The notes under the pieces are model-generated. The model worked only from the letters and a program-made list of their open reading frames with translations, did no database searches and was not told the DNA's origin. Positions 1 through 26,138 of a DNA stretch of 34,839 bases are shown in pieces. Origin of the DNA: an uncultured Clostridia bacterium (GTDB lineage: Bacteria; Bacillota; Clostridia; Christensenellales; UBA1242); assembly GCA_947626955.1 (NCBI GenBank), contig CANQUB010000013.1, forward strand, positions 1 through 34,839, read 5' to 3'. A program made the translations under genes and the position numbers. The first letter of the stretch is position 1. Each line of letters begins with the position of its first letter.

Positions 1-5
1 GAAGC

Positions 6-37
6 TTGCCGCCTGCAATCGCTTGGCTTCTCCTCTC
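6..37. repeat. Dispersed intergenic module A, copy 1 (ttgccgcctgcaatcgcttggcttctcctctc)
   Basis: 32-nt exact match to 25978..26009. Confidence 0.9.
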
Positions 38-99
38 CCCACCAAGCTACGCTTGTCGGGGGCCCTTGCAAAAGTTGATGGGCAACCTTCTTTCTTAGC

Positions 100-137: not shown

Positions 138-179
138 CACTTCATTACACAAGTTAACATCATTAAAATCGGCCTCAAT

Positions 180-277
180 TCGTTTGGTTTAACCAAACGA
201 GTATCATTCGGCCAAAGGACGAGTATCATTTGGCCTGCGGGCCAAGTATAATTCGCTCGCTTGCGAGCGAGTATCAT
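180..277. repeat. Tandem array of four hairpins with unrelated stems joined by GTATCAT/GTATAAT linkers
   Basis: TCGTTTGGTT-T-AACCAAACGA (180-200), TCGGCC-AAA-GGACGA (208-222, one mismatch), TTGGCC-TGCG-GGCCAA (230-245), TCGCTCGC-TT-GCGAGCGA (253-270); each followed by GTATCAT or GTATAAT. Confidence 0.85.
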
Positions 278-284
278 GACGAAG

Positions 285-1295
285 CTAAATAATTATAAGA
301 CAAATAAAGAATGCCAGCACGCCTTGCAAAAACTTGCAAAGGATGAATTGGCCGCTCTTTATTGGGGTGGATGAGAGGAAGGAGAGGGACTGCATGATTA
401 TTGATAGGCCGCCAAAGGCGATGAGAAAACTTATAAAACTAATAGAGAGCGGAGTGAGAGTATAAGAGAGCAATTTTGCCCCCGTCGTCATCTCTATTAT
501 GCCAGACATAATACCTGCTGAAATGTCGGTAAAACCTGGGATACGGCCAAAAATGAAGTTGAGACATGAAGACAGGCAGCCAATGATTTTTAAGTCGGTG
601 AGCAGGTCAATAAATAGTGAAAATAGTGCGATATAGAAGCCCACGATTAGTAGAGATATGCAGGTGTCCTTGGCCGACTTATAAATAATGTTTGAACTTT
701 GCTCGTAGGTTATGGCAGGGGGCTCATTCACTTGCTTTTTCTTTCGACCCACAAGGCCAATGAGGATGGATACAATTATGGCCGAAAGGATGTTGGAAAT
801 ATAGATGATTAGCCCTATTTTGGGGCTATTTAGCATTGCACCGCCCACCGCACCAATGACAAAGATGGGCCCCGAAGTTGAGGACAGCACGGCAGCTCTT
901 GTCACATTTTCCTTGCTAATCAATCCTTTTTGGTAAAGGTCGGCCGTTATGGTGCTGCCAATCGGGTAGCCCGAAATGACGCTCATTAAAAAGGGGTACA
1001 GGCAAGCTCCTTCAAGGTTAAATATTGCTTTCATGGGCTTTCCTGCCTTTTGCGACAAGCGGGAAATGACTTTTAGCTCGGTTATAAGTTTGGTTAGAAA
1101 AATAAAGGGCAAGAGGCCGGGCAAAACGGCGGTAAAAAAGAGCTTCAGGCCTTTTACAACGCTTTGGGCGTAGCGAACGGGAGCAAACAAAATGAGGGCC
1201 ATTACCACCAGTATGGCAAGAGTGAGAAGAATGGAAGAGATTGACAACCCCCTCAAATTCAATTTACTTTTTCGCTTTAATGTAGTATTATTCAT
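285..1295 (-). CDS. YlbJ-like nucleoside-recognition-domain integral membrane protein
   Basis: Multi-TM protein with SGYPIGS and STSGPIFVIGAVG motifs typical of YlbJ-type gate-domain proteins; near tmcAL (ylbM) and yceD-rpmF as in the Bacillus ylb cluster. Confidence 0.7.
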   Translation of the reverse strand: MNNTTLKRKSKLNLRGLSISSILLTLAILVVMALILFAPVRYAQSVVKGLKLFFTAVLPGLLPFIFLTKLITELKVISRLSQKAGKPMKAIFNLEGACLYPFLMSVISGYPIGSTITADLYQKGLISKENVTRAAVLSSTSGPIFVIGAVGGAMLNSPKIGLIIYISNILSAIIVSILIGLVGRKKKQVNEPPAITYEQSSNIIYKSAKDTCISLLIVGFYIALFSLFIDLLTDLKIIGCLSSCLNFIFGRIPGFTDISAGIMSGIIEMTTGAKLLSYTLTPLSISFISFLIAFGGLSIIMQSLSFLSSTPIKSGQFILCKFLQGVLAFFICLIII

Positions 1296-25650: not shown

Positions 25651-25676
25651 GAGGGAAAGGGGTATTTTCCATGAGG

Positions 25677-25714
25677 CCTTGTCACCATCTTCACCTTATC
25701 TGCTACTTTATAAG
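25677..25714. repeat. Dispersed intergenic module B, copy 2
   Basis: 38-nt exact match to 100..137. Confidence 0.9.
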
Positions 25715-25836: not shown

Positions 25837-25912
25837 ACTTTTCACTCTTCACTTTTCACTTAAAAACAGCCAACCATCTAGGTTAGCTGTTTTTTGGTGC
25901 GGGCGGTGGGAT
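25837..25912. repeat. 76-bp direct repeat, copy 1 (heptad tract, terminator, 18 nt of tRNA-Leu 3' end)
   Basis: Exact match to 26063..26138. Confidence 0.95.
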
Positions 25913-25977
25913 AGGTTCGTTCCGCCTCTCTACCTCGTCGAAGCACAAGCTCAATTGTCAGCAACATTCTACGAAAG

Positions 25978-26009
25978 TTGCCGCCTGCAATCGCTTGGCT
26001 TCTCCTCTC
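25978..26009. repeat. Dispersed intergenic module A, copy 2
   Basis: 32-nt exact match to 6..37. Confidence 0.9.
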
Positions 26010-26048: not shown

Positions 26049-26062
26049 CGCCATAACTTTTC

Positions 26063-26138
26063 ACTTTTCACTCTTCACTTTTCACTTAAAAACAGCCAAC
26101 CATCTAGGTTAGCTGTTTTTTGGTGCGGGCGGTGGGAT
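26063..26138. repeat. 76-bp direct repeat, copy 2
   Basis: Exact match to 25837..25912. Confidence 0.95.
26089..26120 (-). terminator. tRNA-Leu terminator
   Basis: Minus strand ACAGCTAACC-TAGAT-GGTTGGCTGT-TTTTA immediately after CCA; duplicated in copy 1. Confidence 0.8.

What the first reader, a model, noticed from the sequence alone, without database searches (positions are those of the whole stretch)
180..277. Array of four hairpins with unrelated stems joined by an invariant 7-nt linker
Seen directly: four consecutive inverted repeats (stems of 10, 6, 6 and 8 bp) whose arm sequences differ, yet three are perfectly self-complementary and one has a single mismatch. Each is followed by GTATCAT (x3) or GTATAAT (x1). 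Variable paired arms in a constant frame is the reverse of a CRISPR layout, and suggests either selection on structure or a mechanism that keeps remaking palindromes. It lies directly downstream of the ylbJ-like gene, so it would be that gene's 3' UTR. I recognise no named repeat family.
Basis: seen in the sequence. Interest (0 to 1): 0.75.

Follow-up and report, generated by a model that had tools for sequence, protein, structure and literature searches.

The report
Hairpin arrays of four-helix-bundle gene elements
The odd row of four hairpins joined by a fixed 7-base spacer is one of at least 46 such arrays in this bacterium's genome, and it appears to be a stray end of a small, undescribed kind of DNA element whose only gene encodes a four-helix-bundle protein and which, in many other bacteria, is bracketed by repeats built on its own 7-base unit.

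Summary
Window 180-277 holds four palindromes separated by exactly 7 nt (GTATCAT, GTATCAT, GTATAAT, then a last GTATCAT). It belongs to a dispersed family: 130 hits for heptamer-gap-heptamer in this 1.2-Mb draft genome against 0 for the reversed-pattern control, and nothing like it in 60 relatives. In 426 kb read closely there are 46 arrays, 37 with exactly four hairpins. Of 1,241 stem pairs 1,209 are Watson-Crick, with covariation, and hairpin words are shuffled between positions. Array ends sit at gene 3' ends, often abutting a terminator-like hairpin.

Main result: the only gene found inside this family is the genome's single PF05635/TIGR02436 four-helix-bundle ("23S rRNA IVP", Avd-like) gene, bracketed by the array's inverted leaders. 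The link is general. Across the order, other classes and other phyla, PF05635 genes are flanked by tandem 7-mers or by hairpins about 7 nt apart, each locus with its own heptamer; in 42 of 130 loci the same heptamer recurs inverted on the far side (null 1.9%).

Best reading: a solo terminal array of a PF05635-encoding element. Binding and movement are inferred. No Y1 transposase or RVT_1 reverse transcriptase was found in the genome.

The parts
155..179 (+). Leader of the array (TAACATCATTAAAATCGGCCTCAAT), a diverged form of the usual ...CATTCCCTAAT leader
   Evidence: Comparison with 46 arrays
180..200 (+). Hairpin 1, TCGTTTGGTTTAACCAAACGA
   Evidence: Sequence; fold
201..207 (+). Heptamer 1, GTATCAT (GTATCAT in 36/37 four-hairpin arrays)
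208..222 (+). Hairpin 2, TCGGCCAAAGGACGA, one mismatch; one base off the common word TCGGCCAAAGGCCGA
223..229 (+). Heptamer 2, GTATCAT
230..245 (+). Hairpin 3, TTGGCCTGCGGGCCAA
246..252 (+). Heptamer 3, GTATAAT (GTATAAT in 36/37 four-hairpin arrays)
253..270 (+). Hairpin 4, TCGCTCGCTTGCGAGCGA
271..277 (+). Heptamer 4, GTATCAT, outer end of the array, 7 nt from the stop codon of the ylbJ-like gene
285..1295 (-). ylbJ-like gene whose 3' end faces the outer end of the array
   Evidence: TIGR02871 E=5e-63, below the model's cut-off
25837..25861 (+). Pure tandem heptamers (ACTTTTC-like) elsewhere in the window: same class of repeat unit, without hairpins between
   Evidence: TRF period 7; sequence
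26056..26087 (+). Second tract of pure tandem heptamers (ACTTTTC-like)
   Evidence: TRF period 7; sequence

Best explanation
The array is a solo terminal array of a dispersed element whose one gene is a PF05635/TIGR02436 four-helix-bundle protein. The element is laid out as array - leader - gene - inverted leader - inverted array. The constant heptamer is the recognition unit, and in this family a hairpin sits between successive heptamers. Shown: heptamer spacing, stem covariation, the four-unit design, paired inverted arrays, 3'-end placement, and the gene bracketed by inverted leaders (the left array lies beyond a contig end). Shown in many other genomes: PF05635 genes flanked by tandem heptamers or heptamer-spaced hairpins, with the same heptamer inverted on the far side in about a third of loci. 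Inferred: the protein, probably an oligomer, binds heptamer plus hairpin on single-stranded DNA or RNA and, with host enzymes, lets elements and array-only copies spread in trans into hairpin-rich gene 3' ends; hairpin words are later exchanged between copies while the heptamers are kept.
For: 130 units genome-wide, 0 control. Gap between successive hairpins exactly 7 nt in 111 cases, at most 12 for any other gap. Covariation 0.966 against 0.718. The only PF05635 gene of the genome lies between AATTAGGGAAT and ATTCCCTAATT plus an array. Arrays of at least 3 distinct hairpins upstream of PF05635 genes 10/80 against 2/655 windows, p=8e-9. Upstream tandem repeats 46/78 against 8/91, p=1e-12, best periods mainly 7, 14, 21. 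Same heptamer inverted across the gene 42/130 against 1.9% null, p=2e-39. Similar PF05635 proteins tend to have similar heptamers (Mantel r=0.12, above all 500 permutations, heptamers chosen from both flanks, and common descent alone could give this). An array-free orthologous site in a congener. Outer ends face gene 3' ends in 32/43 and abut hairpins in 18-21/44.
Against: No movement has been observed; the one empty site is in another species and could be a deletion. Only one PF05635 copy is known in this genome against at least 46 arrays, and its left array is cut by the contig end. The genome also has two other heptamer families (GTGATAT hairpins; ACTTTTC-like tracts) with no second PF05635 gene found. 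About 40% of PF05635 genes show no flanking repeat by these tests. A 115-residue helical bundle has no known catalytic activity. Whether each gene's heptamer is dispersed in its own genome gave mixed results.
Confidence: 0.6

Rival explanations
1. Regulatory RNA reading: the arrays are 3'-UTR or terminator structures kept because they protect or terminate mRNAs, and the four-helix-bundle protein is their RNA-binding regulator rather than a mobility factor.
For: Outer ends lie near stop codons and beside terminator-like hairpins; structure is conserved with a slight G.T over A.C bias, 11 to 4 distinct forms.
Against: Absent from six congeners, as expected of a recent invader and not of a needed regulator; inverted bracketing of the gene itself is an element-like design; linkers are not T-rich, and only hairpin 4 of the window array matches the terminator consensus, weakly.
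Confidence: 0.2
2. The PF05635 gene is a passenger: it inserts into, or is trapped by, heptamer and hairpin repeats that some other enzyme makes and spreads.
For: Many more arrays than PF05635 genes; heptamer families without a gene in the same genome; direct arrangement also slightly above null, 9/130.
Against: Insertion into an existing tandem array should give direct, not inverted, flanks; inverted is 42/130 against direct 9/130. Each locus has its own heptamer, and similar proteins tend to share it.
Confidence: 0.12
3. REP/RAYT-like repeats moved by a Y1 (HUH) transposase that recognises a foot plus a hairpin.
For: Foot-plus-hairpin layout and inverted pairs resemble REPs.
Against: No PF01797 match in the 93%-complete genome, while 5 of 14 control genomes ring; stems are not conserved in sequence; foot is GTAT with 7-nt spacing.
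Confidence: 0.04
4. Ordinary sequence expansion or assembly artefact without function.
For: Draft metagenome-derived genome; contigs often break at these repeats.
Against: Covariation, fixed 7-nt spacing, position-specific heptamer letters and independent occurrence of the same design in other genomes.
Confidence: 0.04

Closest known systems
Dispersed intergenic heptamer repeats (TAACTGA in Beggiatoaceae, Cyanobacteria and Bacteroidetes, PMC4679880; GGGNATC in Xanthomonas and Nostoc, PMC4692102; STRR heptanucleotides of cyanobacteria, from memory)
   Same: 7-nt unit, intergenic, many copies per genome, unrelated lineages, sometimes in inverted pairs
   Different: Here hairpins lie between the units; those papers report no link to PF05635 genes and no established mechanism
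23S rRNA intervening sequences (IVS) encoding PF05635 proteins
   Same: Same protein family; ends inverted and complementary (IVS ends from memory)
   Different: The arrays here are intergenic, not in rRNA; ends are heptamer-hairpin arrays; array-only copies are abundant
REP/BIME/REPIN palindromes with RAYT (Y1) transposases
   Same: Short foot plus hairpin, inverted pairs, intergenic, many copies
   Different: Stem sequence variable, foot GTATMAT, no Y1 transposase found
Small dispersed repeats in heptamer tracts of cyanobacteria (Elhai et al. 2008, from memory)
   Same: Very small palindromic inserts associated with short repeats
   Different: Not compared here; a lead only
Diversity-generating retroelement accessory protein Avd
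   Same: Homologous four-helix bundle, noted in PMC10053308
   Different: No RVT_1 reverse transcriptase found in this genome

Membership tests
PF05635 / TIGR02436 four-helix-bundle protein (the C17 gene) | Match above the curated score | tested here: met
   91.8 bits against cut-off 33.8; TIGR02436 99.4 against 24; solved chain 2rld E=2e-26
Dispersed heptamer repeats | Constant 7-nt unit, dispersed, intergenic | tested here: met
   Gap of exactly 7 nt in 111 hairpin pairs; 130 units genome-wide
Dispersed heptamer repeats | Units directly head-to-tail | tested here: not met
   In the GTATMAT family a hairpin separates units; the same genome has separate head-to-tail tracts of another heptamer
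23S rRNA intervening sequence | Inserted within a 23S rRNA gene | tested here: not met
   Arrays beside protein genes; the C17 gene neighbours a 349-aa protein gene
23S rRNA intervening sequence | Encodes PF05635 protein between inverted ends | tested here: met
   C17 gene between AATTAGGGAAT and ATTCCCTAATT; array-only copies such as the window's do not encode it
REP/RAYT palindromes | Y1 (HUH) transposase gene in the genome | tested here: not met
   No PF01797 match; controls ring
REP/RAYT palindromes | Conserved stem sequence with GTAG or CGTC tag | tested here: not met
   78 distinct hairpins, tag GTATMAT; tag names from PMC3733652 title and abstract
MITE | Inverted ends shared with a parent element in the genome | tested here: inconclusive
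   Shared leaders and arrays with the C17 gene locus, left end cut by the contig
MITE | Target-site duplication at a defined insertion site | tested here: inconclusive
   No clear duplication seen at outer flanks; one array-free site only in another species
Intrinsic terminator | GC-rich stem followed by a T run | tested here: not met
   In the window array only hairpin 4 is listed, on the minus strand, as a weak consensus match
CRISPR | Constant repeats with non-palindromic variable spacers and cas genes | tested here: not met
   The variable segments are self-complementary; cas genes were not searched

The most novel reading that the evidence does not exclude
PF05635 four-helix-bundle proteins define a previously unrecognised, widespread class of mobile DNA: single-gene elements whose ends are inverted arrays of an element-specific 7-mer, spreading without a known transposase or reverse transcriptase of their own. 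Such elements would be a source of the unexplained intergenic heptamer repeats of bacteria, with the hairpin arrays of this genome as their structured form.
Probability: 0.4. Interest if true: 0.92.

Novelty: new variant of a known kind. Interest (0 to 1): 0.8.

Why it matters
Intergenic heptamer repeats have been described in Cyanobacteria, Xanthomonas, Beggiatoaceae and Bacteroidetes without an established mechanism (PMC4679880, PMC4692102). PF05635 proteins are common and, as far as I know, have no established role. A link between the two in which each locus has its own heptamer makes both questions testable, and points to a possible DNA- or RNA-moving or -binding activity in a protein of about 115 residues.

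Tried and rejected
RAYT/Y1 transposase: none. RVT_1 reverse transcriptase: none in the own genome and scattered without clear relation to arrays elsewhere. Rfam: no family. GTDB-wide pattern scan: 86 stretches, probably mostly chance by my estimate, some simple tandem repeats; they were not examined one by one. De novo scan of 298 kb of congeners: no recurrent linker. First, stricter array detector missed real arrays and was replaced. Test whether each gene's heptamer is dispersed in its own genome: mixed, limited by 20-kb samples and near-identical heptamers. The 101-locus heptamer set was chosen using both flanks, so its count and its purine bias are biased and not used as evidence; the unbiased test is. 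Viral contig scans failed on the server. Literature: no paper found that links PF05635 to heptamers or hairpin arrays; PMC10910872 names 23S rRNA IVP only in a figure legend of a CRISPR survey.

Full report
OBSERVATION. Window 180-277 holds four palindromes, each followed by GTATCAT or GTATAAT. It folds far better than shuffled sequence on either strand. In the whole draft genome (1.23 Mb, 64 contigs, 93% complete) heptamer-gap-heptamer occurs 130 times and its mirror control 0 times. Among 60 relatives, six of them congeners, only a few isolated exact matches turn up, with no palindrome evident in the listed sequences. A DNA search of the six congeners finds nothing.

ANATOMY. I read 426 kb of this genome closely. 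It has 46 arrays of two or more hairpins, 37 of them with exactly four. Heptamer 1 is GTATCAT in 36/37 and heptamer 3 is GTATAAT in 36/37; heptamers 2 and 4 are mixed. Between successive perfect hairpins the gap is exactly 7 nt in 111 cases, and no other gap value exceeds 12. Pairs 2-7 of the stems are 96.6% Watson-Crick, against 71.8% when right arms are re-dealt among hairpins of equal length; pairs 4, 5 and 6 each show all four Watson-Crick types. Some words occur at different positions while the heptamer letter keeps to its position, for example TCGCCACAAAGTGGCGA at position 1 with GTATCAT and at position 3 with GTATAAT. So hairpins seem to be swapped as modules. Non-canonical pairs on the + strand are 11 G.T against 4 A.C distinct forms, a hint, not proof, that the + strand is the folded one.

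PLACEMENT. Arrays are often in head-to-head pairs around a core of tens to a few hundred bp, with leaders such as CATTCCCTAATTCG. The outer end faces a gene 3' end in 32/43, usually within about 50 nt. A hairpin starts 0-4 nt beyond the last heptamer in 18-21/44, against 0-7 at offsets of 10 nt or more; a few of the 18-21 are further array hairpins, most look like terminators. At C1:5916-6400 an array and other repeats lie between a stop codon and a terminator. In a congener (L226) the orthologous genes are 30 bp apart with only a terminator-like hairpin. This fits insertion, but deletion in the congener is not excluded.

THE GENE. At the start of contig C17 a 114-aa gene lies between AATTAGGGAAT on the left and ATTCCCTAATT plus a four-hairpin array on the right. 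It is the only PF05635 match in this genome, is also TIGR02436 'four helix bundle protein' (E=1e-28), and matches the solved chain 2rld (E=2e-26). Its left array would lie beyond the contig end.

GENERALITY. PF05635 occurs in 77 of 297 genomes sampled from the order and 62 of 300 from the phylum. By eye, most PF05635 loci first inspected showed hairpin arrays with their own linker. Counted: arrays of at least three distinct hairpins within 600 bp upstream in 10/80, against 2/655 windows from PF05635-bearing genomes of the order (p=8e-9); at least two, 26/80 against 25/655 (p=5e-14). Tandem repeats in 400 nt upstream: 46/78 against 8/91 upstream of other genes (p=1e-12); other classes 18/27 (p=5e-9, against the same order-level controls); other phyla 18/30 against 20/80 (p=1e-3). 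The best period is a multiple of 7 in 32/78, 16/27 and 14/30, against 1/91, 1/91 and 8/80 (counts, tests). Taking the best heptamer from the upstream flank only and looking for it downstream gives inverted 42/130 and direct 9/130; null from other loci 1.9% and 1.6% (binomial p=2e-39 for inverted). Hairpin spacing also peaks at 7 nt beside PF05635 genes of other genomes, with no such peak in control DNA. The 7-nt linker of this finding is therefore best seen as the heptamer of a general class, here with hairpins between units. The window also carries head-to-tail heptamers, ACTTTTC-like, at 25837-25861 and 26056-26087; this genome has 27 period-7 tracts in 426 kb against 3 in 298 kb of congeners.

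MECHANISM. Shown: the points above. Inferred: the four-helix-bundle protein binds heptamer plus hairpin on RNA or single-stranded DNA, and elements and array-only copies spread in trans with host enzymes, favouring hairpin-rich gene 3' ends. No Y1 transposase or RVT_1 reverse transcriptase was found in this genome; DDE transposases and tyrosine or serine recombinases were not searched. An attractive but untested variant is that the heptamer began as a 7-bp target duplication. The XCC0516 homologue is described as an assembly of five four-helix bundles (title of a reference listed in PMC10053308); any relation of five-fold symmetry to 7-nt repeats is speculation.

KNOWN WORK. Heptamer repeats are described as abundant and unexplained (PMC4679880: 'no mechanism is evident'; PMC4692102). 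PF05635 is noted as Avd-like (PMC10053308). I found no paper joining them, but the library lacks most subscription journals and all preprints, so priority is not established.

LIMITS. Draft metagenome-type assembly; about a third of the genome read closely; loci are not fully independent (related genes, and one genome apparently sampled twice, L307 and L398, with identical proteins); repeat tests depend on thresholds; about 40% of PF05635 genes show no tandem repeat by these tests; control windows include coding DNA, though the controls are upstream of other genes; function and movement are untested.

Noticed in passing
L002 about 1230-1480; G000:C33:7911-8116, C36:10562-10819, C42:8938-9142: A second hairpin-array family in the same genome with linker GTGATAT; the same linker type is abundant in order-level relatives G045 and G048, where PF05635 genes carry it (L246, L252).
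   Followed up: partly
window 25837-25912 and 26063-26138: Two identical 76-nt copies that join ACTTTTC-like heptamers to a terminator-like hairpin and the start of a tRNA-overlapping stretch.
   Followed up: partly
window 1-66 and 81-168; partial copies at 25674-25714 and 25973-26009: Other dispersed repeats with dozens of partial copies in this genome, and at most three short weak matches in one congener among 20 relatives searched; they often lie next to the arrays, as if gene 3' ends collect several repeat families.
   Followed up: no
G000:C64:74-451: Three four-hairpin arrays in tandem, about 140 bp apart, each followed by a TTTCGGCCACCG(G/A)CCGAAA palindrome.
   Followed up: no
G000:C8:11749-11847, C14:14380-14480, C6:31493-31586: Neighbouring reading frames overlap the outer heptamer by 4 nt, so the array seems to supply the host gene's stop codon, for example TGA in ATGATAC.
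   Followed up: no
L284 and L339: Very long repeat tracts beside PF05635 genes: 36-nt period x 4.8 built on GTGATGT and 42-nt period x 9 built on CTCCTGT-like heptamers.
   Followed up: no
L339, L341, L345: Several PF05635 genes from different families share CTCCTGA/GGAGTCA-like heptamers, worth checking for horizontal spread.
   Followed up: no
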